NCBI GenBank assembly: GCA_018242585.1
Contig: JAFEBQ010000046.1
Location: 1-64,000, forward strand
Reading direction: 5' to 3'
DNA length: 64,000 nt
From: Planctomycetota bacterium
GTDB taxonomy: Bacteria; Planctomycetota; Planctomycetia; Pirellulales; PNKZ01
The position numbers were made by a program, and so were the translations under genes. This document shows positions 6,485 through 48,700 of this stretch, in pieces; within the stretch, counting starts at the first letter, position 1; every line of letters begins with the position of its first letter. The notes beneath the pieces are model-generated. The model was not told the DNA's origin. It was given only the letters and a program-made list of their open reading frames with translations, and ran no database searches.

Positions 6485-6508
6485 CGAAGGCGCACAGGGC
6501 AATTCACC

Positions 6509-7969
6509 TCACGCCTCGTCGCCGCCGTATTGGTGGACTTGCGGGTGAGTGATGTGCTCCTGCTTATAGCCGCCCGTCGCGCGGAAATAGAGCAATAGCA
6601 AGAGATAACAAACGGCCATGGCGCAGGGCACGAAAGCCGTCAACTCAAGCGCCTTCTTGCCGCCGGCAATCGTCGCGCTTTCGATTTCGCTCTTTGCTTT
6701 CGCTTCGGCAGGAGTCGGGTTGGTCTTTTCCTTCAGAGCCCCAACTTTATCAGCATCGAGAACGCTGATCTTCGGCAGAACGTAAAGTTCCTTTTGCTTC
6801 GCATTGACGTATTCCGTGTAGACAGCCGCATCCGACTGTTCGAGGGCTTGTGCTGTAGCATAGTCCTGCTTGTACCCAATGATCGGCCCCCCCAGCAGCC
6901 CCGCCGATAGCATCCCGATGCCGCCCATGAGGCCCATTGCCAGTGCGCCCCCTTTTGGGAACCGCTCTCCGACAACGCCCAGCATCGTGGGCCACAAGAA
7001 TGTCTTGCCCACGCCATAGATGGTCCCGGCCAAGAAAATCATCAATGCCGACTCGCTCGTGCCAAACAAGTACAGCCCGAATGCCCCGATGACTGAACTG
7101 ATAAAGAGCAATCCAAGCGGATTGGTACGTTCGACAATCGGACCAGCGAAGAATCGCAATACGAACATGACGCCCGATGTATAGACAAACAGCAACGCCG
7201 CCCATTCGGCGATTGACGCCTTCATGATGTCCTGCATCCACGAGTCGGTCCCAAGCTCGACGTAACCGACCATCGCGTGGATAACGAGCAAGAAGACCAA
7301 AATCGGTGACGCGAGTTGTGCCAACATTTGGCCGAAGTTCACCCCAGCAACGGATGCTTCGGATTTGGGGAACGACTGGCGCAACACGATCAATCCGTAA
7401 ATCACCGTCGGGACCAGAAACACGCACATCAGGATTTCCCAGCGCACGTGCGAGAGGACCGAATGATGGCCCGCGAACGCATATGCCACCAAACCGCCGA
7501 TGATCAAGCCACCGGGCCAACCCGCATGAAGAATGTTCAGATAGTGCGTCTTTTGCTGCGGATATAACGTCGCGACGAGCGGGTTAATGGCAGTTTCGCA
7601 AAGACCATTCGCGAGTGCGAACAGGAACATTCCCGCGTAAAGACACCAATACGTGGCATCTTTGCCAAACGAATGAAACACCGGCGTCGCGGCAATTGTC
7701 AGTACCGCCGAAGCCACGTGCAGAACAAAACCACCAATGAGCAGCGCACGATAGCCGACCAAATCAGCGAAGATGCTGAAGAAGATAATCATCACGCCGA
7801 AGCCCCACAGGCCACCGCCGGTGATCTTCCCGAGTTCCGTCTTTGTAAATCCGAACGTCGACTCCCAGTCGTCAAGAATGCCTCCGCGAATTGCGAAGCC
7901 GATACCCGCTGCGATCAACGTCATGAAACTGGCTAGGAAGATAGAACGCCGATTTGACGAATCAGACAT
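6509..7969 (-). CDS. MFS transporter, FucP-like sugar permease type
   Basis: This 486-residue polytopic membrane protein has about 12 predicted helices. It opens with SIFLASFMTLIAAGIGFAIR, and the first helix pair leads into the GYRALLIGG loop. Features include NPLVATLYPQQKTHYLN in the N-terminal half and NPLGLLFISSVIGAFGLY in the C-terminal half. An unusually long loop of about 80 residues, rich in Lys, Glu and Ala, separates the last two helices. Substrate is unknown; related proteins move sugars by proton symport. AAGGA lies about 10 bases before the ATG. Base composition is visibly lower in GC than neighbours (29 of 60 G/C in row 7081-7140, counted by hand), suggesting a different origin. 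It stands alone. Confidence 0.85.
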   Translation of the reverse strand: MSDSSNRRSIFLASFMTLIAAGIGFAIRGGILDDWESTFGFTKTELGKITGGGLWGFGVMIIFFSIFADLVGYRALLIGGFVLHVASAVLTIAATPVFHSFGKDATYWCLYAGMFLFALANGLCETAINPLVATLYPQQKTHYLNILHAGWPGGLIIGGLVAYAFAGHHSVLSHVRWEILMCVFLVPTVIYGLIVLRQSFPKSEASVAGVNFGQMLAQLASPILVFLLVIHAMVGYVELGTDSWMQDIMKASIAEWAALLFVYTSGVMFVLRFFAGPIVERTNPLGLLFISSVIGAFGLYLFGTSESALMIFLAGTIYGVGKTFLWPTMLGVVGERFPKGGALAMGLMGGIGMLSAGLLGGPIIGYKQDYATAQALEQSDAAVYTEYVNAKQKELYVLPKISVLDADKVGALKEKTNPTPAEAKAKSEIESATIAGGKKALELTAFVPCAMAVCYLLLLLYFRATGGYKQEHITHPQVHQYGGDEA

Positions 7970-8128
7970 GCGGAATAGTCCTTCGCGGGTCGTAAAGGCA
8001 ATGGTGGCAATGCTAGCGGGCGCGGGAAGCCACCGAGTATAGCCGGGCTGTTTGGAAAAGAAACACTCGCTGGCAGCGGGGCGCGTGGCTGGGAAAAACG
8101 CCGTGAGCCACCGCGATTTCAGGGCTTT

Positions 8129-11100
8129 GTGGCGCGTGAATGTTCGGCGCGCCAGCCTCTGGCGGTGCGGCTAAACCGCAAGCGTCGCGCGGGGCGACAT
8201 CGAGCGTTCTCGCATGCTTGCATCGCCGGCGCGGCCACGAGTGCGCTGGCGGCATGTTTGGCTCGCCTTGACCCATGTTTCGAAAGCCGCGAAACTACCG
8301 CCCCGCTTGTTCTCGAAGTTTCGTTGTGCAAAGGATTTGCACCCATCTTTCCGCGTCTCGTCGACACCGCTTGGAGTTGGTTCAAGTGGGGCCTGCTGCT
8401 CGTCGTTCTGGGCAGCCTGGTCGTGGGGCCCTATTGCTTTCAGAAGCTCAACGAAGAAGTCCGACGGCGCGTCCAATTTCAAATCGCGCAGCACTATCGC
8501 GACATGTCCATTCGCGTCCGCGCGGCGCGAATCATCGACGGCGAAGGAATCGAAATCCGCGGCCTCGCCATCGCCGACCCCAAGCTGTCGGGTCCGCCGG
8601 CCGATCTGGCCTACTTCGATGAGATGACGCTGGCCTGTTCGACCAACCTGGCCGACATGGCTCGCAACCAGTTGCAAGTTCGCCAGATCACGTTGCGCAA
8701 GCTGACCTTGCGCGGCGTGCGCCATGCCGACGGCACGTGGACGTTGGGCCAACTGCTGCCGCTGCCGCAACTGAGCGATCGACCGCCGCCGGTGGTGCTG
8801 GAGGACGCCACGATCGAACTCTTCGATCCGCACAAGACGCCGTCCACCGTCATGCGCTTGCGCAATGTCAACCTCCGGCTCGAACCGATCGATCCGGCCA
8901 CGACGCAAGGACAACAGCGCATGGCCCTGCGCGGTCACTTGATGACCGACCAGGTGCGCCGCATCGACGTGCAAGGCTGGATCGATTGCACGGGCAAAGC
9001 CTGGCGACTGGCCGCGACGATCGACGGCATGGAACTGGGCCCCGACCTGGCCACGGCCATGCCTTGCCCTTGTCCTCAGCAAGTTCTCGCGCTGCAAGCG
9101 CTGCGCGCGCAATTGAACGCCCATGTCGTAGGCGATTACGACGCGCGCCGGGCACAGCCCCTGATCTATGAAGCGCGCGGCCAGATTCAGCGCGGACGTT
9201 GGGACGACGCGCGACTGCCTCACCCGATCACCGACCTGAAGATCAAGTTCCACTGCGACGATCAAGGCTGCCGGATCGAGGAACTGGCCGGGCGCATTGG
9301 CCAGGCCGAGTTGACGGCCAGCGGCCAGCGGCAAGGCTACTTGCCCGACAGTCCGATCCGATTGCACGTGGCGGCGCGGCGGCTGGTCGTCGAATCGTCC
9401 TGGCTGCGCGTGCTGCCCGAGCGGTTTCAGGAAGAATGGCGCAAGTACCAGCCGGCCGGCGAAATCGACTTGGACGGCGACCTGTTGTTCGACGGGCGCA
9501 CCTGGCAGATCGACGGCGAATGCAAGTTGCTGAACATGTCGTTCTGCTACTTCAAGTTCCCCTATCGGCTCGACAACGCCTGCGGCGCGCTGCGGCTGAA
9601 GCAGCACAAGCTGAGCGTCAACCTGGTGGCCAAGGCCGACGACGCGCCGGTGCAGATCATCAGCGAATGGGCGATGAACCAAACGCCGCTGTTGGGCTGG
9701 GCCGAAATCCACGCCCAGCAGGCCCGATTCAACGATCGGCTGATCGAAGCCCTGCCCGAGCGAACCGCCCTGGTCGTGCGTCAATTGCGCGCGGCCGGCA
9801 CGTGTGACGCGGTGATTCGCTTCTGGCGCAGCACTGAGACCGGCGTGCCCGAGGAGCACAAGTCGATGCTGTTGACGCTGCGCGACTGCAGCATGCGGTA
9901 CGACAAGTTCCCCTATCCGGTTCACAACATCGTCGGCCAGATCGAGATGTTCGACAACCTGTGGACGTTCAAACGCCTGGCCGGCAAGAAGGGGCCCGGC
10001 GCGATCACCTGCGACGGCACGCTGGTCACGTCGAGCGCCGGCGGCGATTTGAAACTGCACATCACCGGCCAGCAAGTCGGGCTCGAGGACGAGTTGCGCG
10101 ACGCGCTCACTCCGGCCGCGCGGCAACTGTGGCTGGACCTGAAGCCGCAGGGAACGGTGAACGTCGCGGCCGATGTGCGCGTGCTGCCGGGGGGACAGCC
10201 GGTCCAGTTGTTCATTCGCGCCGAACCTGCCGCCGACAACGTGTCGATCGAGCCAGCGCGGTTTCCCTATCGGATGGACAACATTCACGGCGTGTTCACC
10301 ATTGCCGACGGCCGGGCCACGATCGAGAACTTGCGCGCCGAGCATGGACGCACCCGGCTTAACAGCCAGGTCGAATGTCTGTTCAGTCCCGATGGCGGCT
10401 GGGCTTTGAGGTTCAACCAGATGACGGTCGATCGCGTGCAGCTCGATCGGCCGTTGATGCTGGCCCTGCCCGAGCGCTTGCGCAAGGCTCTGGCCGAGTT
10501 GCAATTCAGCGGCGCGTTCAACATGCGCGGCGCGTTCGAGTTGGCCAGCACCGGACGTCCGAACGAACCGACCACGTCGGGTTGGGACATGGAGTTCGAC
10601 CTGCACCAGAACGCCGGCAAGCTGGGCGTGCCGCTCGACAACCTGAATGGCGGCGTCCATCTGCGCGGCAACTTCGACGGTAAGCAGTTTCAAAGCCAAG
10701 GAACGGTCCACCTGGACTCGGCCACGTACCGCGACCTGCAATTGACCGACGTGAGCGGCCCGTTGTGGATCGACGACACGCGGCTCTTGGTTGGCGTCTG
10801 GGCCGACCGACTGCTGAAAGTCGCGCCCGAGCGGCATCTGGCGGCGCAACTTTACAGCGGCACGGCGATGGTCGATGGCTGGTTGCTGTTTGGGCCGCAA
10901 TCGCCGTACGAGTTCCAGATGGCACTCAACAAGGGAAGTCTGGCCCGCTGGAACCAAGAGGCGCTGGGGAACCGCGAGCGCCTGAGCGGCGACATTTACG
11001 CGCAACTGACCCTGCGTGGCAAAGGCAAAAGCCTGCACGACTTGGGCGGGCGCGGCTCGATCGAGCTGAAAAACGCCAACATTTATGAATTGCCGTTGAT

Positions 11101-31407: not shown

Positions 31408-32667
31408 CTACTTGGCAAAGCCGAATTCGGCGCCATACATCTCGACCACGCCGGCGGTAACGATCTTGGCGCCGACGGCGGGCCCGCGCTCGAGAATAGC
31501 GGTGTCGCCCTGCACCTGGCGCACCTCGACGCGGCGGCGCACGAAGGTGTGGGGCGCGGTCTGTTCATAGACCCACGTGCCGCCATAAATGTCGTAGATC
31601 ACCGCCGACCAGGGAACGGTCAGTTGCTCGTCCTGGCCGCGCAAGCGGAGCCGAGCCGTCACACGTTCACCCGGCTTGAAGCGGCCGTCGGCGTTCGGCA
31701 GGTCGAAGTACAAGTCAACCGCGGCGGCCAGCGGTACGGCCGTCGGTGGCGCGGCAATCGGCGCCGCGCTGAGCGGCTTGTCAACGAGCCGATCGGCCAG
31801 ACCGGAGATTTGCGCAGGTTGATTCGGGGCCAGCGCATCGACCTCGCCGGCGTAGACCGAGACGCGGACCCAGACGCGACTAGTATCGAGCACCTCGAAC
31901 AAGGGCGCGCCGGGGGCGACCGCTTCGCCCGGCGCGACGTGCTCGACGCGGACAATGCCGTCGCGCGGCGCGGTGATGGTCAGCGGCGCGAGCTTGCCGG
32001 GGGCTTCGTCCAAGTTGATGCTGTCGGCCTGCGACTTACGCGCGCGGGCGGCGTCGAGAGCTTTCTGGGCGATGTTTAGTTGCGCCTGGGCGTCGTCGAC
32101 AGCCCGTGCCGTGCCGACATCTTGCTTGAGCAGCTTCTGGGCCCGCTCGAGCGCGATCTGCGCCGCTTCGACCTGGGCGGTCGATTGGGCCACCTGACCG
32201 GCGGCGTCGATCTGGCTTTGGCGCACGATGTTGCGCGCTTCGGCAAAGCGAACCCTCTCGGCCGGTGTCAGCACTTCACGCTCGGGCGACAACAGGGGCA
32301 ACAGGGTCAGCACCGGCTGTCCTGCTTTGAGTCGGCTGCCGACCTTGGGGAAGGAACTGCCCGCGGCTTGCAACGTGCCACCCAAGGGGGCCGAGACAAT
32401 TAGCGAGGCCCCTGTCGGCAGCGCGATCTCGCCACCATAGGGGCGGAGCATTTGAACCGGCCGCCGCGCGATCGGGGCCAGGGTGATCCCCAGCCGGCCT
32501 TCGGCCTCGGGGGTGAGCTTGATGGTGTTCAACTCGCTCTCTTGAGCGACCTGGGCAATCTTCGCTGGCGGTTCAGCTTTGGCCTTGGCTTCGGGCGCAG
32601 GTTTGCAGCCAGATGCCACCCCGAGAAGCAGCGCAAGCGAAAAGTAGATCGTGCGTGTCCAGGGCAT
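31408..32667 (-). CDS. RND periplasmic adaptor (membrane fusion protein), lipoprotein
   Basis: This protein of about 419 residues starts with a lipobox (LLLGVASGC). It shows the HlyD-type order: a barrel-sandwich half-motif (LIVSAPLGGTLQAAGSSFPKVG), a helical hairpin (AAGQVAQSTAQVEAAQIALERAQKLL and partner), the second lipoyl half (ITAPRDGIVRVEHVAPGEAV), a beta-barrel and a membrane-proximal domain. It links the RND pump to the outer-membrane factor. The ATG at 32667 replaces an in-frame TTG three codons earlier. First gene of the efflux operon; no metal-responsive regulator gene is adjacent. Confidence 0.93.
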   Translation of the reverse strand: MPWTRTIYFSLALLLGVASGCKPAPEAKAKAEPPAKIAQVAQESELNTIKLTPEAEGRLGITLAPIARRPVQMLRPYGGEIALPTGASLIVSAPLGGTLQAAGSSFPKVGSRLKAGQPVLTLLPLLSPEREVLTPAERVRFAEARNIVRQSQIDAAGQVAQSTAQVEAAQIALERAQKLLKQDVGTARAVDDAQAQLNIAQKALDAARARKSQADSINLDEAPGKLAPLTITAPRDGIVRVEHVAPGEAVAPGAPLFEVLDTSRVWVRVSVYAGEVDALAPNQPAQISGLADRLVDKPLSAAPIAAPPTAVPLAAAVDLYFDLPNADGRFKPGERVTARLRLRGQDEQLTVPWSAVIYDIYGGTWVYEQTAPHTFVRRRVEVRQVQGDTAILERGPAVGAKIVTAGVVEMYGAEFGFAK

Positions 32668-32819
32668 GGGCGACAAAGCTTACGAGGGTGCGTGTGCCAA
32701 GAAGAATGCGAACGTGGCTTCCATTTTGATTACCGACCCCGGTGAATCGCAACTCAAATTGACGAGGGTTTAATGCTGGGGACGCGAAAAAAACATCTTG
32801 TCGACGTGCCATGAAGCCA

Positions 32820-32852
32820 ACAAAAAGCCCCCGGTCAATGACCGGGGGCTCA
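32820..32852 (-). terminator. Rho-independent terminator built on a family H hairpin
   Basis: AGCCCCCGGTC-AATG-ACCGGGGGCT (32826-32850) is a near-perfect hairpin. Read on the minus strand it is followed by TTTTTG. It lies about 45 bases after the Gfo/Idh/MocA stop codon. The same hairpin without a T tract occurs at 34645 and 52442. Confidence 0.85.
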
Positions 32853-32895
32853 AGAGAACTTGTCGAAATCCAATTCAACCAACCGAGTACGCCGC

Positions 32896-34272
32896 TTATG
32901 CGTACTCTTGCTTGGTGGTGATGCCGGGCATCGGAATCGGGTAGAGACCCTTTTCGTTAGCCTTTACGGGCGCGTCGCCGGTCATTGTCAGCTTGTCGAT
33001 GTTCGGCGCGAATTCGTGCTCCGAGTTCAGAATCTGGTCGAGCTTGATCTCCTGGCCGGTGTGACAGGCCATGCGACCCATCGAAGTGACCAGGCTGGCC
33101 ATCGCGCCGCGCTGGGCTTCGTTATAGGGCGTGTCGCTGCGGACGGCGGCCACCAACTCGTCCCATTCCTTCTGGTACGGATTGTAGCTCTCCTTGCCGA
33201 AGCTCCAGGCGACTTCGTCCTTGTCCTTGATCTGTCCCTTGTAGATGGCCGCCTTGCTGGGCCAGTGGGACGAAGCGCTAATGACGGCCATTCCCTTGGT
33301 GCCGTGGGCGTAGCTGGCAAACTCGTTGCGACAGCCGGCAATCCAGCGCCCTTCCATGAACATCTTGGCGCCGTCGTCGAACGTGTATTCGACCGAGTAG
33401 TGGTCGAAGTTCTGGTCGATGTTGTCGCCGCGGTAATGACGGCCACCGTTGCCAATGGCCGAGACCGGCCAGGCGTCCTTCATCCAACAGCATTCGTCGA
33501 TGTTGTGGACCATGAAGTCGCTGTACGCGCCGCCGCTGGCCCACAAGAAGCTGTGGAAGTTCTTGATCTGGTAGAGCAGTTCGCTCATGTCACCCTTGTT
33601 GGGGCCCGTCTCGCACGAGCCGACGGGGCCGTGCATCCGGTAACAGCGCAACGTCAACAGGTCGCCGATCTCGCCGGCGCGGATGCGCTTGAACAGTTCC
33701 TGACGCGCTTCACAGTGCCGGCACATCAGCCCGACGCCGACCTTCAGATTCTTGGCCTTCGACTGCTCGGCCAGGGCCAGCATCTTGCGCGTGCCGGGAC
33801 CATCAACCGTCGTCGGCTTTTCCATGAACACGTTCAGGTTCTTCTTGATCGCATAGTCGAACATCACCCAGCGGAAGCCCGGCGGGGTGGCGAAGATGGC
33901 AATGTCGCCAGGACGCAGACAATCCATCGCCTTTTGATAGCCGTCAAAGCCGATGAACTTGCGGTCGTCGGGAACGTCGAGCTGGGCGTCGTGCTTCTTC
34001 TTCAGGTTTTCATGGCTGGCGTTGAGCTTGCTCGCGAACACGTCGGCCATGGCGATTAGCTTGATCGGCCCGCTCGACGTGGTCGACAAGGCGTTCGACG
34101 CGGCGCCGGTGCCGCGGCCACCACAGCCGATGAGCGCGACGTTGATCGTGTTGTCCTCGGCGGCGTGGACCTTGGGAATGGCCACGCCCATCAGCGCCGT
34201 GGCGGCGGCCGCAGTGCTGGTGGCTTTGACAAAGTCGCGACGATTGGTCCCCTGAGCGTCCGCTGGCTGCAT
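32896..34272 (-). CDS. Tat-exported Gfo/Idh/MocA-family oxidoreductase
   Basis: This 458-residue predicted NAD(P)-dependent sugar or inositol dehydrogenase has a twin-arginine signal (TNRRDFVKA, then an Ala-rich hydrophobic region). The Rossmann motif is VALIGCGGRGTG. The family's EKP triplet is present (VFMEKPTTVDGPG), as are the catalytic-side FHSFLWASGGAYSDFMVHNIDEC and MEGRWIAG segments. Substrate is unknown; planctomycetes have many exported members. GGAG lies 8 bases before the ATG. It is monocistronic, with its own terminator. Confidence 0.93.
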   Translation of the reverse strand: MQPADAQGTNRRDFVKATSTAAAATALMGVAIPKVHAAEDNTINVALIGCGGRGTGAASNALSTTSSGPIKLIAMADVFASKLNASHENLKKKHDAQLDVPDDRKFIGFDGYQKAMDCLRPGDIAIFATPPGFRWVMFDYAIKKNLNVFMEKPTTVDGPGTRKMLALAEQSKAKNLKVGVGLMCRHCEARQELFKRIRAGEIGDLLTLRCYRMHGPVGSCETGPNKGDMSELLYQIKNFHSFLWASGGAYSDFMVHNIDECCWMKDAWPVSAIGNGGRHYRGDNIDQNFDHYSVEYTFDDGAKMFMEGRWIAGCRNEFASYAHGTKGMAVISASSHWPSKAAIYKGQIKDKDEVAWSFGKESYNPYQKEWDELVAAVRSDTPYNEAQRGAMASLVTSMGRMACHTGQEIKLDQILNSEHEFAPNIDKLTMTGDAPVKANEKGLYPIPMPGITTKQEYA

Positions 34273-40085: not shown

Positions 40086-42353
40086 TCAGCGCGACCTTGT
40101 CACCGACCCGTCGGTCGGCAGATCTTCCACGCTGACGGCCGTTTGCAGGCTGGTGATCGCTTGCTGAATCTGCCGGGCCAGCGCGTAGCCGAGCGCGGCT
40201 GCAAGCAGACCGACCAGCCCCAGGCCGACAAACACGCCGCGCGATTCGGTGTGGACCAGCGGCACGACGATCACCGCGATCGGCACGACGGCCAGCGACA
40301 GCCGCGCATAGACCGAGTTGCGCCAGCTCAATCGGGCCAGCGCCAGCCACATCGTTTCGTCATCTCGCTCGTTTTCGAGCAGCGTCGGCGTGACGACCAC
40401 AATCAGATACCAAGTGACCAGAAAGAACGACCAGGTCGCGGCCAGCATCCCGCACACCAGTTGCGAGGCGATGAAGTGAATGAAGTGGCTGCTGTCGATG
40501 CCGATTTCGCTGCCCAGCGCCATCCGGAACCAGGTGGGGAACACCACGCCCGACACCGACCACTCGACAACGGTCAGCACCGCCACGTAGTCCCCCAGTA
40601 GGAGCGAGCGGAGTCGCCAGCGCAACAGCGGCCCGCCTTTCAAATCGCGTCGATTCGCGCGACGCCGGGCCGCCTCGATCACCGGCAGGCACAAGGCAAT
40701 CACCAACCCGACGCCGAATGCGTAGGCGAGCGAGTTGATGATCAACAGTTGCTTCTGGAACACCGCCACGGCCGCGTCGTGGGGCAGGTGGCGAAGAATC
40801 TCGCGGTAGTTGTAGCTGATGTTCAAAGCGCTGGCCGCCACGTTGGGCAACAGCCCGGCCAAGATCAACACCGGCCAAGGGTGCCGCCGCATCCAGGCCA
40901 GCCCCCCCTGGCCCGAGGGACGCAACAGGCTGCGCACGTCAGCCTTCAGGCACAAATCGAGCTCGCGCTGCAACTGGGCCGCGCTTGCCATCCGCCGCGG
41001 CGGGCTCGACTCCAAGCAAGCACGCAACACGTCGACCATGCCGGCCGGACAATTGGCGGGCAGTCTGGCCAGCGCGGCCTCGGTCAGCCCTTGCCAACGC
41101 CGCGAGGACATCTCGCGCAGCGCGCGCGATGTCAGCTCGCCATTGATCTCGTCGATGAACGGCCGCTCGCCGTTCAGCAACTCCCACAGCAAAATGCCCA
41201 GCGAAAACAGGTCGCTCCGCGCGTCGAGCGACGCCGCCGTGGCGCTGTGACCGAGAAACACTTCCAACTGCTCGGGGGACATATAGGCCAGGCTGCCGCC
41301 AAAGAACGCGCCGGCCGTCGCCCCCGGCACCAGCTCGCAACTGCTGATGTTGAAGTCGGCCAGCTTGGGGCTGCCGTCGGCGGCCAGCAGCACGTTGGCC
41401 GGCTTCAAGTCGCGGTGCAGCACGCCTTGCCCGTGGGCGTGATCGAGCGCCGCGGCCAAGCGCGCGCCGAGCCAGCAGACCGCCTCGGGCCAGCTCAATC
41501 GGGCCAGGTAGCGCCGCGTCCGCGAATCGGTCGGCGGCGACTCGCCCCGGGCTTTCAACTGCTCGTCGATCGTTTCGAGCAACAACGCGCCGCAGCGCAA
41601 CTCGACGGGCGTTTTGCGAACCCACTCGACCACATCGCGCAACGTGCCGCCGCCGATGTACTGCATGTACATCAGGCGGAGTTGCGGCGGGAGTTGGCGC
41701 TGATCGAACACGCGAACGATGTTTGGGTGGTCCAGTTGCGCGAGCGTGTGCGATTCAAAGCCGCTGTCGGCCGTGATCTTCAGGGCCACCATCCGGCCGA
41801 GCGATTGCTGCCGGGCCTGGAAGACACTGCCGAACGCGCCGCGACCCAACTGCGCGATTAACAGAAAATCGTCGATCACGTCGCCGGGCTTGTGTTCAAC
41901 CGCGCGCGAGACGATCGACAGCGACGTCGTGTGCTCGGTGTTCATGTTGGACAGCAGGGCGCGAATCTCGTCTTGCTGGGCCGGGAAGCGGGCGAAATAC
42001 TCCTCGGGCTCGACCCGATCACCGTGCAACGCGCGCAATCGAAACTCTTCGTAGATCAAGTCCCCCGGCATCCGCCCGTCGTCGAGCAGTTCCGGAAACC
42101 GCGCGGCATACCCTTCGAGCGCCAATCGCCGATTGGTGTGCCGCCAGCGACGGTCGAGATCGACCTTCACGAGTTCCAGCAGCGCCATGCGCCGGAACAG
42201 CGCCGTGTCATCGGGCAGAAACTCGGCGAGGTCCGGCGGCTCGACGGGCGGTGCGTCGAGGCGCGCTTGCCAGGCCGCGGCGAACCGATCGATGCACGCC
42301 GTCAGGTGCGCGACGAGGACCGTCGGATCGGCATGCACGTTTCCGGTAGTCAT
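40086..42353 (-). CDS. Ser/Thr protein kinase with C-terminal membrane helices
   Basis: This 755-residue protein has a planctomycete-type N-terminal region of about 160 residues (FPELLDDGRMPGDLIYEEFR, then FARFPAQQDEIRALL) leading into a Hanks-type kinase domain. The P-loop is LGRGAFGSVF, the ATP-binding Lys is in VALKI, and the catalytic loop is HRDLKPANV (about residue 315). The Mg-binding DFG is DFN here (LADFNIS), an unusual glycine replacement. SLAYMSPEQLE and DLFSLGILLWELLNGERPF follow. About six hydrophobic helices fill residues 500-730, so the kinase faces the cytoplasm and is anchored at its C-terminus. No cognate phosphatase is nearby. Confidence 0.93.
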   Translation of the reverse strand: MTTGNVHADPTVLVAHLTACIDRFAAAWQARLDAPPVEPPDLAEFLPDDTALFRRMALLELVKVDLDRRWRHTNRRLALEGYAARFPELLDDGRMPGDLIYEEFRLRALHGDRVEPEEYFARFPAQQDEIRALLSNMNTEHTTSLSIVSRAVEHKPGDVIDDFLLIAQLGRGAFGSVFQARQQSLGRMVALKITADSGFESHTLAQLDHPNIVRVFDQRQLPPQLRLMYMQYIGGGTLRDVVEWVRKTPVELRCGALLLETIDEQLKARGESPPTDSRTRRYLARLSWPEAVCWLGARLAAALDHAHGQGVLHRDLKPANVLLAADGSPKLADFNISSCELVPGATAGAFFGGSLAYMSPEQLEVFLGHSATAASLDARSDLFSLGILLWELLNGERPFIDEINGELTSRALREMSSRRWQGLTEAALARLPANCPAGMVDVLRACLESSPPRRMASAAQLQRELDLCLKADVRSLLRPSGQGGLAWMRRHPWPVLILAGLLPNVAASALNISYNYREILRHLPHDAAVAVFQKQLLIINSLAYAFGVGLVIALCLPVIEAARRRANRRDLKGGPLLRWRLRSLLLGDYVAVLTVVEWSVSGVVFPTWFRMALGSEIGIDSSHFIHFIASQLVCGMLAATWSFFLVTWYLIVVVTPTLLENERDDETMWLALARLSWRNSVYARLSLAVVPIAVIVVPLVHTESRGVFVGLGLVGLLAAALGYALARQIQQAITSLQTAVSVEDLPTDGSVTRSR

Positions 42354-42590
42354 AGCGCGGCACGTCGCGGACGAGAAACACGTCGCAAAAGAAAAGCGAA
42401 CCGGCCGTCCATTCTAGTGATCAACGGCGGCCAAGCACGTGCCCAGGGGGCACGCCCAGTAATCCCTGGTCAGTTGCTTTTCAATTCTGCCCCAAATGCC
42501 AAGGCGTGTACATGCAACGGCAAGGAATGCGGTAAAATGCTGCGCGGTTCTGAACGAAATGTACAGCGTTTGTTCCAGGAGAACACAAAA
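42354..42590. other. Divergent intergenic region between kinase and PHP-ATPase genes
   Basis: No gene is seen. GC content falls from left to right as the AT-richer ATPase gene begins, so one edge of a transferred segment may lie here. No direct repeat, inverted terminal repeat or tRNA remnant marking an insertion site was recognised. Confidence 0.4.
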
Positions 42591-45395
42591 GTGGACAAAG
42601 GGGCACATTTTCACAAATGCGATTTTCAGGTTCATAGCCCGCGAGATCGACAATGGAATGGCACTCGTCCTTCCGACGAAGCAGGGCGGCAGTCTTACGC
42701 CGAGTCATTCATCCAAGAATGCCGAAAAAAAGGGTTGGACGCTGTAGCGATCACCGATCATCACGACCTAGTGTTTTTTTCGTACATAAAGCGGGCTGCG
42801 GCAAATGAATTGGATGACCAAGGCAACCCAATTCCGGAAGAAAAGCAAATCGTCGTGTTTCCCGGAATGGAGCTAACACTGGGCATACCCTGTCAAGCTC
42901 TTGTAATTCTTGACGCCACTTTTCCGACGGACATGCTCTCGACTCTCTACACCGTGTTGGCGGTGCAACTGCCTGATCCTGGCGCAGACCAGACTATCGA
43001 CACCAAACAGCTATCGGACATAAGGAGCTTCTCGCAGCTTTGCGAGATGCTCGACCGGCACGATCATTTGAAAGGGCACTACATCATTCTGCCCAATGTG
43101 ACGGAAAGCAGTGGCTCATCGCTCGTCAGGAAAGGATTTCATGCAGAGTACAAGAACATGCCGTGTCTAGGCGGCTACGTCGATGGCCCTGTCTCCGGCT
43201 GGGGCGCTGGCATAAAGAGCATTATCGAAGGTAGGAATCGAGAATACGGATTCAAGAGTATTGGGGTAATTCAAACCTCTGATAATCGGCACGAAGACTT
43301 CCGGCTCCTTGGGCAACATGTGTCATGGATAAAGTGGGCCACGCCAACCGCGGAAGCACTTCGACAGGCGTGCCTCGCCCACCAAACTCGCATCTTCAAT
43401 GTTGAACCTCAGATTCCAGCGCAGGTAATTCAATACCTCGATATATCAAACAGCAAATTCCTCGGGCACATACGAGTCGAGTTCAACTCCCAATTCAATT
43501 GCCTAATTGGCGGAAGAGGGACCGGAAAGTCGACCATTTTAGAGTATTTGCGTTGGGCGCTCTGTGATCAGCCGCCCTCAACTGCAAGCGACGAGGATTT
43601 GCCTAACTTCCAAGCGAAGCGCGCGAGTCTGATTGAGAATACGCTAATCCCATTCGAGGCAGTCGTCACTGTCGGTTTCACTGTCAACAGCGCTAGTCAT
43701 GTTGTGCGAAGAAATGCACGTACGAAAGAACTGCTGCTAAAGATTGGTGGGGGTACCTTTCAGCCTTGTACTGAGGACGATGTCCGGAATCTTCTTTCGG
43801 TTCAGGCCTACAGCCAAAAGCAATTGAGCGCAGTTGGTGTTCGCAACGAAGAGCTTATGCGATTTGTGCTAGCCCCGATCAAACAGCAATATGCAGAGCT
43901 TGCCAGCCGTGTTGATGACTTAAAGAGTCGCATTCGTACGAGCTACGGCCAACTCCAGCGAAAGCGGACGATTCAACGTGAGATCAGGAGGGATGAGCTG
44001 GCTTTAGAATCACTGCAAACTCAATTGGGAGTTTTGCGAGAGTCTTTGAAGGGGCTGTCCTCGGAAGACCAGGCAATTCTCGCTGAAAACGTGAAGTTCC
44101 AAAACGAGGAACAGTCGTTCGCTACTTGGGATCGAGAGCTTGAGCAAGCGCGCGAAGTCGTGCGAGATGCCGGCGGAGCTTTGGCGAGGTTGCCGTCTCG
44201 AGTCGCCGAGGACGCCAAGTTGACGAGCACAAGCTTGATGAGTGACGCAAGTCAACATATTGAGGCATTGTTTCGAGTGACTAAAGAGCGATTGCGCGAA
44301 ATCGCCGTCAACCTCGAAGATGCGGCAAGTCAAGGCGCGTTGCACTCGTTTCTGGAGTGTCAGCGTGAATGGGATGCAAAGCACAAGGCTCACCTGAAGC
44401 TTTTTGAGGCAGTGAAGGAAAAGGCGGCCTCAAACCAAGCCACGCTAAAGCAGATTGAAAAAGCTGAATCGGAATCAAGACAACTAAATTTATCGCTAGC
44501 CGCGAGCCGTCAACGCCTCGCCTCGCAAGGCAAGCCGGAGGATGAATACGCTCGCGCTAAGGCAGAGTGGGGCCAGATCTATCACGAACGAGCCGATCTG
44601 ATCGAGACAAAATGTGGGGAGCTTACGTCGCTTTCGAACGGGTATATCAAGGCTACCCTTTTGCGAGGAGCGGGTATTGATGCGGCTAAGGAGCGAATCG
44701 GAGCGATAATTGCTGGAACTAAGATTCGGACGAAGAAGATCGATGAATTATGCGCTCATATTGCCGATGCGAAGGATTCTGTCGCTGAGTGGTCTCAAAT
44801 CCTGGACGAAATGGAGGCGCTGGCTGCGATCGAAGCAAAGGATGGCGAGATGATAGCGTTGCCGGGATCGCCACTTCTCAATTGCCTGGGATTTACTGCG
44901 ACGGAGCTTCAGCGAATTGCAGTAAAGCTCAGTGTAGATGAATGGCTGACCTTATCGCTTGTTGAGCTCAGTGACATTCCGAGGTTCGAGTACAGGCTTG
45001 GGGAGGCTGACTACATCGCGTTTGAAGATGCGTCCGCGGGGCAACAGGCAACGGCGTTGCTGCGCGTACTATTGAACCAGGAAGGCCCTCCGCTGATCAT
45101 CGACCAGCCTGAAGAAGATTTGGACAACCCAGTCGTCCTTGAAATTGTTAGCGATCTGTGGAGGGCGAAGCAGAAACGGCAGCTAATCTTTAGCAGCCAC
45201 AATGCAAACATTGTCGTTAATGGTGATGCTGACCTCGTCATCTGCTGTGGATATCGATCGGCAGGCGATCAAACGAAAGGAACAGTGAAATGCGAAGGCG
45301 CAATCGATGTTGAAGAGATTAACAAAGAAATAACCGCTGTTATGGAGGGCGGTAAGGAGGCCTTCAGGCTACGAAAGGAGAAGTACGGGTTTTAA
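42591..45395 (+). CDS. PHP-domain plus SMC-like AAA/ABC ATPase (TrlF/Ppl-type), putative defence protein
   Basis: This 934-residue protein fuses an N-terminal PHP phosphoesterase to an SMC/RecF-like ATPase. PHP motifs are DFQVHS (residues 11-16, with Gln13 where most PHP enzymes have His), ITDHHD (54-59), FPGMEL (90-95) and TSDNRHED. The ATPase has Walker A GGRGTGKST near residue 308, a long coiled coil (about 430-700), an ABC-type signature DASAGQQATALL, Walker B PLIIDQPEEDLDN and a switch FSSHNAN. Single-gene PHP-ATPases of this layout have been reported as antiphage systems (Ppl) and appear as TrlF-family ATPases. The GTG at 42591 is chosen for AGGAG 9 bases upstream and the family N-terminus KGxxFHKCDFQVH. 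The gene is markedly AT-richer than its neighbours (30 of 60 G/C in row 44461-44520). Confidence 0.88.
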   Translation: MDKGAHFHKCDFQVHSPRDRQWNGTRPSDEAGRQSYAESFIQECRKKGLDAVAITDHHDLVFFSYIKRAAANELDDQGNPIPEEKQIVVFPGMELTLGIPCQALVILDATFPTDMLSTLYTVLAVQLPDPGADQTIDTKQLSDIRSFSQLCEMLDRHDHLKGHYIILPNVTESSGSSLVRKGFHAEYKNMPCLGGYVDGPVSGWGAGIKSIIEGRNREYGFKSIGVIQTSDNRHEDFRLLGQHVSWIKWATPTAEALRQACLAHQTRIFNVEPQIPAQVIQYLDISNSKFLGHIRVEFNSQFNCLIGGRGTGKSTILEYLRWALCDQPPSTASDEDLPNFQAKRASLIENTLIPFEAVVTVGFTVNSASHVVRRNARTKELLLKIGGGTFQPCTEDDVRNLLSVQAYSQKQLSAVGVRNEELMRFVLAPIKQQYAELASRVDDLKSRIRTSYGQLQRKRTIQREIRRDELALESLQTQLGVLRESLKGLSSEDQAILAENVKFQNEEQSFATWDRELEQAREVVRDAGGALARLPSRVAEDAKLTSTSLMSDASQHIEALFRVTKERLREIAVNLEDAASQGALHSFLECQREWDAKHKAHLKLFEAVKEKAASNQATLKQIEKAESESRQLNLSLAASRQRLASQGKPEDEYARAKAEWGQIYHERADLIETKCGELTSLSNGYIKATLLRGAGIDAAKERIGAIIAGTKIRTKKIDELCAHIADAKDSVAEWSQILDEMEALAAIEAKDGEMIALPGSPLLNCLGFTATELQRIAVKLSVDEWLTLSLVELSDIPRFEYRLGEADYIAFEDASAGQQATALLRVLLNQEGPPLIIDQPEEDLDNPVVLEIVSDLWRAKQKRQLIFSSHNANIVVNGDADLVICCGYRSAGDQTKGTVKCEGAIDVEEINKEITAVMEGGKEAFRLRKEKYGF

Positions 45396-45782
45396 TGCAG
45401 CGGATGGCACCAGCCTTCAATTTGTCTGTGATTTACTGGTTTTTCCTTGTCTCTAACCTAAAACACGGGCGACGGGATCGCAGGTAAATCGTTGGCAGAT
45501 TCCTTTGGGCTGGTTACCATAGATGTCTGGCTGCGGTCGACCCACGACCAACCTGCAGCGTTCGCCGTGCCCGTTCCCCGCCGACTGTCGGCCGGAATGC
45601 GAACGACTGCTCGTGGCTCCGACCGCCAGCTCGTGACCCTGGGCGCCTGCCGAGCTGTGACGCTCGGCTACTGCCGTTCGATTCCGACCGGCAGACTGGC
45701 ATGAAGCTGAACCGACAAGCTGTGCCAGCCGCGAACCAACGCTTCGCGCTCGCGCGGCGCGTCATGAATCGCGGATTGACCT
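45396..45782. other. Intergenic region without recognised gene
   Basis: The AT-richer character of the ATPase gene ends within the first 100 bases or so and GC-rich DNA resumes. Short open frames here have no credible start or family. A promoter for the following PSD1 gene is expected, but no boxes could be assigned. Confidence 0.4.
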
Positions 45783-48700
45783 ATGCCAGAGTTGTTGGCT
45801 TGCCTGTGGCGGCGCGCGGCTGCGCTCCTTTCTTTGATCATAACGCTGTCGAGCGTGGGCGCGCTCGCGGCGGCGGCCGAACGACCCATCGAATTCAATC
45901 GGGACATTCGCCCGCTCCTGGCTGAGTATTGCCTGGCCTGTCACGGTCCCGACTCGGCCAATCGCAAGGCCGATTTGCGCCTCGACCAGCGCCAGGCGGC
46001 CATCGACGCCGGCGCGATCGTGCCGGGCAATGAGAAGGCCAGCGAGCTGATCGCGCGGGTTCTGTCGGGCGATCCCGAACAGGTCATGCCGCCGGCCGAC
46101 ACGACCAAGAAACTGTCGCCGGCCCAGAAAGACCTGCTCCGCCGCTGGGTCGCCAGCGGGGCCGAGTACCAGGTCCACTGGTCGTTCATTCCGCCGCGCC
46201 GTCCGGCCTTGCCCGCCGTCAAACAAACCGACTGGGTCCGCACGCCAATCGATCGCTTGGTCCTCGCGCGCTTGGAAGCGGCGGGCTTGAAGCCTGCGCC
46301 CGAGGCCGACCGGCGGACGTTGGCGCGGCGGCTGAGCTTGGACCTGACCGGGCTGCCGCCCGAGCCGGCTGACGTCGACGCGTTCGTGGCCGACACCTCG
46401 ACGGACGCGTACGAGAAGTACGTCGATCGATTGCTGGAATCGCCGGCCTGGGGCGAGCATCGGGGCCGCTACTGGCTCGACGCGGCCCGCTATGCCGACA
46501 CGCACGGCATTCACTTCGACAACATGCGCGAGATGTGGTCCTACCGGCAATGGGTGATCGAGGCGTTCAATCGAAACCTGCCGTTCGATCGATTCACCGT
46601 CGAGCAGTTGGCCGGCGACCTGCTGCCGACGCCGACGCTCGACCAGCGGATTGCCACCGGCTTTAACCGTTGCAACATCACGACCAACGAAGGTGGCATC
46701 ATCGACGAAGAGTACGCGGTCCTCTACACCCGGGACCGGACCGAGACCACGTCGCAAGTCTGGATGGGGCTGACGGCGGGCTGCGCGGTTTGTCACGATC
46801 ACAAGTTCGATCCGCTGAGCCAGCGCGAGTTCTACGAGCTGGCCGCCTTTTTTAACAACACCACCCAGGCCACCCGCGACGGCAATATCAAGGACACGCC
46901 GCCGGTGGTCGTGGTGCCGACCGAGGAAGACGAGGCCCGCTGGTCGGCGCTGCAAGGGGAGCTGGCGGCCCTGCAAGGGAAAGTCGACGCCAACCGGACG
47001 GTGGCCCGCAAAGTGTTCGACAAGAACTGGCTGCCGACGGCACGCACCAGCTCGATCGCCGGGCACCTGCCGCACGACGGATTGCAGTTCCACGCCCTGT
47101 GTAGTGAAGGAGTCGGCAACACGCTGCACGCCGCGGTCGAGGGGCAGATGCGAGCGCTCGCGCTGGCCAAGCCGTTGCAGTGGCAACCTGGCCACGTGGC
47201 CGACAAGGGGCTGCGAACGTCGAAGGATCAACCAATCGACGTTGACGACGTCGGCGGCTTCGACACCAAGGACGCCTTTTCCTTCGGCGCTTGGGTACGC
47301 ATTCCCGGCGCGCGGCAAACCGGGGCGCTCCTCTCGCGGATGAGCGAGAAAGATCATTTTCAAGGCTGGGACTTGTACATCGACGAAGGGGTCCGCTTTG
47401 GCGTTCACTTTGTCGCCAAGTGGGAAGAAGACGGCATCAAGCTGCAAAGCAACACGCAGCTCAAGCCGAACGATTGGGCCCATCTGTTCGTGACCTACGA
47501 CGGGTCGGGCAAGGCGGCGGGCATCAACATGTACCTGAACGGGCTGCCGGCCGCGTCGAAAGTCACGACCAAGAACACGGTGCTGAAGGGGAGCATCAAG
47601 GCCAACGTGCCCATGGCGCTGGGGCGACGGCATTCGACGTGGCCGATCGACGGCGCGGTCTTGAACGACATTCGCGTTTACAGTCGGGCGCTCAAGGCGA
47701 CCGAGGTCGAGCAACTGGCCCGCGGCACGCGCAGCCTGGCCGTCGTGGCCAAGGCGGCCGACAAGCGCACGCAAGCCGAGCTGGGCGAGCTGTTCGACTG
47801 GTGGTTCAACCAGTTCGACGCCACCTCGCGACAGTTGGGGGCCGAGCTGGCCAAGCTGCGCGGCGAAGAGGCGCAAATCAAAGGGCGCGGCACGGTGGCC
47901 CACGTGATGAACGAAAAGGGCGAAGCGCCGATGGCGTACATTTTGTACCGCGGCGACTATGACAAGCGCCGCGACGAAGTCAACGCCGACACGCCCGACA
48001 TCCTGCCGGCGATGGACAGCGAGCTGCCGCGCAATCGGCTGGGCCTGGCCCAATGGCTGCTCGACGCCGATCACCCGTTAACCACGCGCGTGACGGTGAA
48101 TCGCTTCTGGCAGGAAGTGTTCGGCGCTGGCCTGGTCCGCACGGCCGGCGACTTTGGCGCGACGGGCGAGTTGCCGTCGCATCCTGAGTTGCTCGATTGG
48201 CTGGCCGTCGAGTTCCGCGAGTCGAGCTGGGACGTGAAGCGATTCTTCAAGCTGCTGGTCACCTCGGCGACCTATCGCCAAAGCGCCGTGGCCGACAAGC
48301 TGAAACTCGAAAAAGACCCCGCGAATCGCCTGCTCTCGCGCGGGCCACGGTTCCGGATGGATGGCGAGATGCTGCGCGACTACGCCCTGGCCAGCAGTGG
48401 ACTGCTGGTGCGGAAGCTTGGCGGGCCGAGTGTGAAGCCTTACCAGCCGGACGGGGTCTGGGAGGCGGTGGCGATGATCGGCAGCAACACGCGCGACTAC
48501 AAAGCCGACAAGGGCGAGGGGCTGTATCGGCGGAGCATGTACACGTTTTGGAAGCGCTCGGCCCCACCGGCGTCGATGGATATTTTCAACGCGCCGAGCC
48601 GTGAGATTTGCTGCGTGCGGCGCGAGCGGACCAATACGCCGTTGCAGGCGCTGGTGACGTTGAACGATCCCCAGTTCGTCGAGTCGGCGCGGCATCTGGC

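What the first reader, a model, noticed from the sequence alone, without database searches (positions are those of the whole stretch)
42591..45395. Isolated PHP-SMC ATPase of TrlF/Ppl type in AT-richer DNA, with a Gln-for-His change in PHP motif I
The protein couples a PHP phosphoesterase (DFQVH, ITDHHD, FPGMEL, SDNRH) to an SMC/RecF-like ATPase (GGRGTGKST, DASAGQQ, LIIDQPEEDLDN, FSSHNAN). It stands alone between a kinase and a cytochrome operon and is visibly less GC-rich (30 of 60 in row 44461-44520, against 46 of 60 in row 46321-46380, hand counts). The layout fits the single-gene antiphage family Ppl/TrlF. The first metal histidine of motif I is Gln13, so the nuclease or phosphatase centre may differ from ordinary PHP enzymes.
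Basis: partly seen in the sequence, partly recalled or inferred. Interest (0 to 1): 0.65.

Follow-up and report, generated by a model that had tools for sequence, protein, structure and literature searches.

The report
TrlF defence ATPase with remodelled PHP
A planctomycete has acquired, as a single foreign gene, a relative of a known anti-phage protein whose nuclease-type domain has swapped four of its metal-holding histidines for other residues that are then kept across bacterial phyla, which suggests the domain still has a job but probably not the usual DNA-cutting one.

Summary
The gene is real: GTG at 42591 to TAA at 45395, 934 aa, with an N-terminal PHP domain and an SMC/RecF-type ATPase. 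It scores 520 bits against NCBIfam TrlF_fam_ATP (cutoff 350) and only 168 against Ppl (cutoff 1000), so it is a TrlF-family protein and not Ppl proper. It is a single low-GC insert (51.6% against 63.9 ± 1.5% for the rest of the window), absent from its relatives and rare in its class, so it was probably acquired horizontally.

The Gln is no oddity of this copy. It is fixed in a clade of 19 sequences from planctomycetes, Bacteroidota, proteobacterial plasmids and viral contigs, and it is one of four changes. In the register of canonical TrlF/Ppl, His becomes Gln13, Gln102, Asn169 (17 of 19) and Arg233, while His15, Asp56, His57, Glu94 and Asp231 never change. The domain is better conserved than the coiled coil and models as a PHP barrel (pLDDT 91; Z 16.4 to EndoQ). 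The best reading is a DNA-end-type defence ATPase with a variant PHP that no longer holds the usual metal cluster, as in E. coli Pol III alpha. Whether any hydrolysis remains is open. New variant of a known family; moderate interest.

The parts
42591..45395 (+). TrlF-family PHP-ATPase gene, GTG start, 934 aa
   Evidence: NF045780 520 bits, cutoff 350; start matches homologues
42577..42581 (+). Shine-Dalgarno-like AGGAG upstream of the GTG
   Evidence: Read directly
42591..43421 (+). variant PHP domain (residues 1-277)
   Evidence: Profile-profile match to canonical TrlF PHP, probability 99.7, E 1.9e-26; AlphaFold model pLDDT 91.1, pTM 0.90; PDB matches EndoQ Z 16.4, other PHP proteins Z 10-15
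42627..42629 (+). Gln13 codon, in place of the first motif-I His
   Evidence: Gln in 19/19 of the clade, His in 18/18 canonical
42633..42635 (+). His15 codon, retained motif-I His
   Evidence: 19/19 and 18/18
42756..42764 (+). Asp56-His57-His58 codons; Asp56 and His57 are the retained motif II, His58 is clade-specific (Asn in 17/18 canonical)
42870..42872 (+). Glu94 codon, retained bridging Glu
   Evidence: 19/19 and 18/18
42894..42896 (+). Gln102 codon, in place of His
   Evidence: Gln in 19/19, His in 18/18
43095..43097 (+). Asn169 codon, in place of His
   Evidence: Asn in 17/19 and His in 2/19 of the clade; His in 18/18 canonical
43281..43289 (+). Asp231-Asn-Arg233 codons; Arg233 in place of the last His
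   Evidence: Asp231 and Arg233 in 19/19; register against D-x-H
43509..43535 (+). Walker A, GGRGTGKST (307-315)
   Evidence: conserved in canonical TrlF
45030..45047 (+). ABC signature-like motif ASAGQQ (814-819)
45093..45128 (+). Walker B region LIIDQPEEDLDN (835-846)
42450..45450 (.). low-GC segment that ends close to both gene ends (about 0.45-0.56 in 100-base steps near the ends)
   Evidence: Fine GC scan

Best explanation
This is a horizontally acquired, single-gene TrlF-family defence ATPase. The SMC/RecF-type head, expected to dimerise on ATP and carrying a long coiled coil, probably senses DNA ends or other abnormal DNA during phage or plasmid invasion, as reported for the relative Ppl. 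Its PHP domain keeps the fold but has lost the usual metal cluster: four histidines are replaced by Gln, Gln, Asn and Arg. It most likely works as a binding or regulatory pocket (nucleotide or DNA end) rather than as the ordinary metal-dependent 3'-5' exonuclease. Shown here: family, clade, residue changes, conservation, predicted fold and foreign composition. Inferred: defence role, DNA-end sensing and loss of ordinary nuclease activity.
For: TrlF model over cutoff, full length. Clade of 15 rows with 100/100 support on an ATPase-only tree. At the metal-type positions Gln13, Gln102 and Arg233 are 19/19 and Asn169 17/19, against His in canonical TrlF, while His15, Asp56, His57, Glu94 and Asp231 are 19/19. 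The PHP domain is 45-56% identical within the clade and the coiled coil 20-35%, so the domain is under selection. The fold model is confident and matches PHP nucleases. E. coli Ppl, reported as a 3'-5' exonuclease (PMC12904381), keeps the canonical set. In E. coli Pol III alpha five of nine PHP ligands are replaced, with Arg at positions 1 and 9, and metal binding and nuclease activity are gone (PMC3666897); single or few changes abolish PHP exonuclease activity elsewhere (PMC5636811). Mobility: plasmids, integrative elements, recombinases and viral contigs. Seven of 17 loci with at least some readable flank carry a restriction or methylase gene next to it.
Against: Five metal-type residues are strictly kept, which a purely non-catalytic pocket would not obviously need. 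Gln can ligate metal weakly, so one metal site could survive. Two members (L010, L040) keep His at 169. The window copy has no defence gene beside it (one search shows only generic kinase matches in the neighbour), and I found no phage assay for this clade.
Confidence: 0.5

Rival explanations
1. The PHP site is still a nuclease or phosphoesterase but with a remodelled, probably mononuclear site (Gln13, His15, Glu94, Asp231, with Arg233 stabilising the phosphate), perhaps on a different substrate.
For: His15, Asp56, His57, Glu94 and Asp231 are invariant in 19/19, and new residues Asp19 and His58 are also invariant; the domain is as conserved as a functional enzyme domain; the nearest solved fold is a DNA endonuclease.
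Against: The positions that hold the second and third metals in known PHP enzymes are mostly gone; precedent says that such changes end exonuclease activity.
Confidence: 0.35
2. Accessory of restriction-modification systems rather than a free-standing antiphage system: it processes or guards DNA ends made by a neighbouring restriction enzyme, and the nuclease is supplied from outside, as epsilon does for Pol III alpha.
For: Mod-Res-TrlF with gaps of about 8 bases on Sphingomonadaceae plasmids; helicase/PLD plus Eco57I methylase; two methylases upstream and a PD-(D/E)XK nuclease downstream on a viral contig; Mrr-nSTAND3 32 bases upstream.
Against: The other ten loci, including the window, show no restriction gene in the flank that could be read (several flanks are cut short); canonical TrlF also sits near restriction and related genes, so the link is not specific to the variant.
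Confidence: 0.12
3. A decaying gene whose PHP domain is losing its catalytic residues.
For: Catalytic His residues are replaced.
Against: Replacements are identical across phyla, the domain is well conserved, and the frame and all ATPase motifs are intact.
Confidence: 0.02

Closest known systems
TrlF family AAA-like ATPase (NCBIfam NF045780)
   Same: Full-length match at 520 bits, PHP plus SMC-type ATPase, ATPase motifs intact, patchy distribution
   Different: Four of the PHP ligands that are invariant in canonical members are replaced; about 25% identity to canonical members
Ppl, E. coli anti-phage protein (NCBIfam NF042955, PADLOC Ppl)
   Same: Same domain order, single gene, homologous ATPase head
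   Different: 168 bits against a cutoff of 1000; Ppl keeps H-x-H, vH, AH and D-x-H, this protein does not
TrlF of the Photorhabdus temperature restriction locus (PMC7554251) and its Yersinia relative
   Same: Same family
   Different: That locus has TrlG and TrlR; no TrlG beside the window gene. TrlF in the Yersinia relative has its own altered site (TNHN, CD-x-K)
E. coli DNA polymerase III alpha PHP domain
   Same: Variant PHP that keeps the fold while losing ligands, with Arg at position 9 (PMC3666897)
   Different: Different protein context (polymerase); position 1 is Arg there and Gln here
Endonuclease Q (PHP family)
   Same: Nearest solved fold, Z 16.4, rmsd 4.0-4.2 over 222-223 residues
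   Different: 14% identity; EndoQ is a catalytic lesion endonuclease

Membership tests
TrlF family (NF045780) | Score over the curated cutoff along the full model | tested here: met
   520 bits against 350, profile 1-944
TrlF family (NF045780) | PHP domain followed by an SMC/RecF-type ATPase with intact Walker A, signature and Walker B | tested here: met
TrlF family (NF045780) | Canonical PHP metal ligands (common in the family but not taken as defining, since other TrlF subgroups over the same cutoff also vary here) | tested here: not met
   Gln13, Gln102, Asn169 and Arg233 in place of His
Ppl (NF042955) | Score over the curated cutoff | tested here: not met
   168 bits against 1000
Ppl (NF042955) | Complete PHP ligand set as in E. 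coli Ppl | tested here: not met
Ppl (NF042955) | 3'-5' exonuclease activity released by nucleotide depletion | not testable with these tools
Anti-phage defence gene (general) | Patchy distribution and mobile or foreign context | tested here: met
   Of 58 relatives only the window's own genome has a full-length hit; 2 of 398 in the class, itself included; foreign GC; plasmid and integrative-element relatives
Anti-phage defence gene (general) | Protects cells from phage | not testable with these tools
Photorhabdus TRL locus | Adjacent TrlG (AlbA_2 plus HATPase_c_4) | tested here: not met
   Neighbours are a kinase and a cytochrome gene; TrlG-like neighbours seen at canonical loci and at one member of the clade (L116)

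The most novel reading that the evidence does not exclude
A clade of mobile defence ATPases in which the PHP nuclease has been turned into a metal-free sensor (of nucleotides or DNA ends) that gates the SMC-type ATPase, with any cutting done by a partner or not at all: a defence protein working without its nuclease.
Probability: 0.35. Interest if true: 0.6.

Novelty: new variant of a known kind. Interest (0 to 1): 0.42.

Why it matters
Ppl is described as inhibited by NTPs bound to both its PHP and its NTPase domain. A clade that keeps the architecture but replaces the PHP ligands in a fixed way offers a natural experiment: it can separate the sensing role of the PHP pocket from its cutting role. 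It also shows that a TrlF or Ppl annotation should not be read as 'active PHP nuclease' without looking at the ligands.

Tried and rejected
Membership in Ppl proper: rejected by score. Gln13 as a one-off mutation or sequencing error: rejected, 19/19. Decay: rejected. Empty-site comparison: the best kinase and cytochrome homologues lie on different contigs in the relatives examined, so no empty site could be read. Flanking repeats: only short, imperfect matches, no convincing target-site duplication. tRNA insertion site: none in the window. Promoter scan: no more than chance. Direct PDB search by sequence with the clade's PHP profile: no match up to E 5, so the mapping rests on the canonical profile and the profile-profile alignment. 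Full-length structure model: modest (pLDDT 68), not used for argument. I first thought that the clade lacks TrlG; L116 has a TrlG-like neighbour, so that claim was dropped. A search of the paper library for PHP, SMC and restriction together found only the one review.

Full report
What is there. The gene at 42591-45395 (+) is a complete frame of 934 aa that starts with GTG, preceded by AGGAG. The mechanical ORF begins upstream at 41892, but homologues start at the same place, MDKGAHF. The gene has GC 0.516 and GC3 0.55. The window ORFs over 250 aa average 0.642 and 0.79, and the lowest of 554 equal-sized, overlapping stretches outside the gene is 0.593. The low-GC segment ends close to both gene ends. 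The neighbours are a Ser/Thr kinase and planctomycete cytochrome/PSD1 genes, so the host is a planctomycete.

Family. NCBIfam TrlF_fam_ATP matches full length with 520 bits (cutoff 350). Ppl_antiphage gives 168 bits (cutoff 1000) and Spaf_1101 161 bits (cutoff 475). The PADLOC Ppl match is best in the C-terminal ATPase, 801-930. Pfam does not recognise the PHP domain at all but does find the SMC-type ATPase. A canonical TrlF from a plasmid reaches 520 bits on the PADLOC Ppl profile over its full length. The window protein is therefore a TrlF-family protein and not Ppl in the strict sense.

Distribution. Of 58 genomes, nearly all of the same order, only the window's own has a full-length match. 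Full TrlF hits over the cutoff occur in 25 of 392 genomes of the phylum. The particular clade of the window is rarer still: 2 of 398 genomes in the class, itself included, and 2 of 296 in the sample around the Mucilaginibacter genome, one of which was the centre of the search. It is not a core gene.

The clade. Close relatives (40-52% identity to the window protein for those found by protein search) come from a Pirellulaceae MAG (L006), Bacteroidota (L008, L009, L112), a MAG binned as Lactobacillus (L007), a Myxococcales MAG (L010), alphaproteobacterial and Hymenobacter plasmids (L011, L012, L015-L019), other planctomycetes (L036, L040, L114) and two IMG/VR viral contigs (L054, L082). In a tree built from the ATPase part alone, the 15 of them included form one clade with 100/100 support, and the window protein is sister to L006. 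The altered PHP site therefore coincides with a real lineage that was defined without using the PHP domain.

The changed site. I aligned the PHP domains of the clade (A3) to canonical TrlF PHP domains (A2). A2 matches solved PHP enzymes by sequence (RNase AM, 3o0f, TM0559, EndoQ). A3 aligns to A2 with probability 99.7 and E 1.9e-26. In that register the clade has Gln13 for the first motif-I His, Gln102 for the His of 'vHil', Asn169 for the His of 'AH' and Arg233 for the His of 'SD-x-H'. His15, Asp56-His57, Glu94 and Asp231 are kept. Counts: Gln13, Gln102 and Arg233 in 19/19 (18 distinct sequences); Asn169 in 17/19 (His in L010 and L040); the retained residues in 19/19; canonical members have His in 18/18 at 13, 102 and 169. 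In one search the gap placement hides the last His of the canonical rows, so the Arg233 comparison rests. Asp19 and His58 are additional clade-specific invariants.

Not decay. Within the clade the PHP domain is 45-56% identical to the window protein, the ATPase N-lobe 53-64%, and the coiled coil 20-35%. A model of the PHP domain from 12 sequences has pLDDT 91.1 and pTM 0.90. It matches EndoQ with Z 16.4 (222-223 residues, rmsd 4.0-4.2) and a run of other PHP proteins, including RNase AM and Pol III alpha, with Z 10-15.

What it means for function. Known PHP nucleases hold three metals with nine residues (PMC5636811). E. coli Pol III alpha has five of the nine replaced, binds no metal and has no nuclease activity; [quoted passage not shown] coli has it at position 9 (PMC3666897). 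The window clade has the same change at position 9 and amides at three others. E. coli Ppl, described in a review as a ssDNA 3'-5' exonuclease that is held back by NTPs bound to its PHP and NTPase domains and triggered by 3'-OH ends (PMC12904381), keeps the full canonical set. My reading is that the clade keeps the sensing and ATPase machinery and has given up the ordinary metal cluster. The strict retention of His15, His57, Glu94 and Asp231 leaves room for a one-metal enzyme, and I cannot exclude it.

Neighbourhood. The clade is mobile: conjugative and other plasmids, a relaxase and T4SS (L009, L116), a serine recombinase (L008), an integrase (L051) and a transposase (L050). In seven of 17 loci with at least some readable flank a restriction or methylase gene is adjacent or next on the contig: Mod-Res-TrlF (L016, L017, and L018 with its near-copy L015), helicase/PLD plus Eco57I methylase (L050), two methylases and a PD-(D/E)XK gene (L054), Mrr-nSTAND3 (L012), and a Type ISP enzyme on the other strand (L082). 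Several flanks are cut by contig ends. Canonical TrlF also lies near restriction or related genes and, at a few planctomycete loci, beside TrlG-like AlbA_2/HATPase proteins (three of the 36 neighbour proteins scanned from seven loci). I therefore do not claim that the restriction link is specific to the variant. The window copy is an orphan.

Verdict. This is a known family with a new, fixed variant of the PHP site, in a rare mobile clade. The defence role is inferred.

Noticed in passing
L045-L049, L106-L110 (planctomycete genomes): TrlF-like ATPases of about 630-650 aa without any PHP domain form their own clade (100/99). The L106 copy sits directly after BrxL-like and weakly PglZ-like genes and before a HATPase_c and a response-regulator gene, so it may belong to a BREX locus.
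   Followed up: partly
L033, L034, L039: A second TrlF subgroup has a different altered motif I (CALQV-NP: first His is Gln, second His lost) but keeps the AH His; it is a separate 100/100 clade.
   Followed up: partly
L091, L028, L035: The group of the Yersinia TrlF, relative of the Photorhabdus namesake, has TNHN in motif II and CD-x-K instead of SD-x-H, a third kind of altered PHP site.
   Followed up: no
L017:2255-8005: On Novosphingobium plasmid Spl the Type III-like Res gene and TrlF share one open frame of 1916 aa. The spacing is one base longer than in the close relative L016, so this could be a natural fusion or a sequencing error.
   Followed up: partly
window 45093-45128 and all TrlF compared: Nearly all TrlF proteins have Gln, not Glu, directly after the Walker B Asp (IDQPE...), unlike typical SMC and ABC ATPases; L043 and L048 have Glu.
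   Followed up: no
window 6500-8500 and 32500-33500: Two other dips in GC (0.54-0.58) in the window, smaller than the one at the TrlF gene.
   Followed up: no
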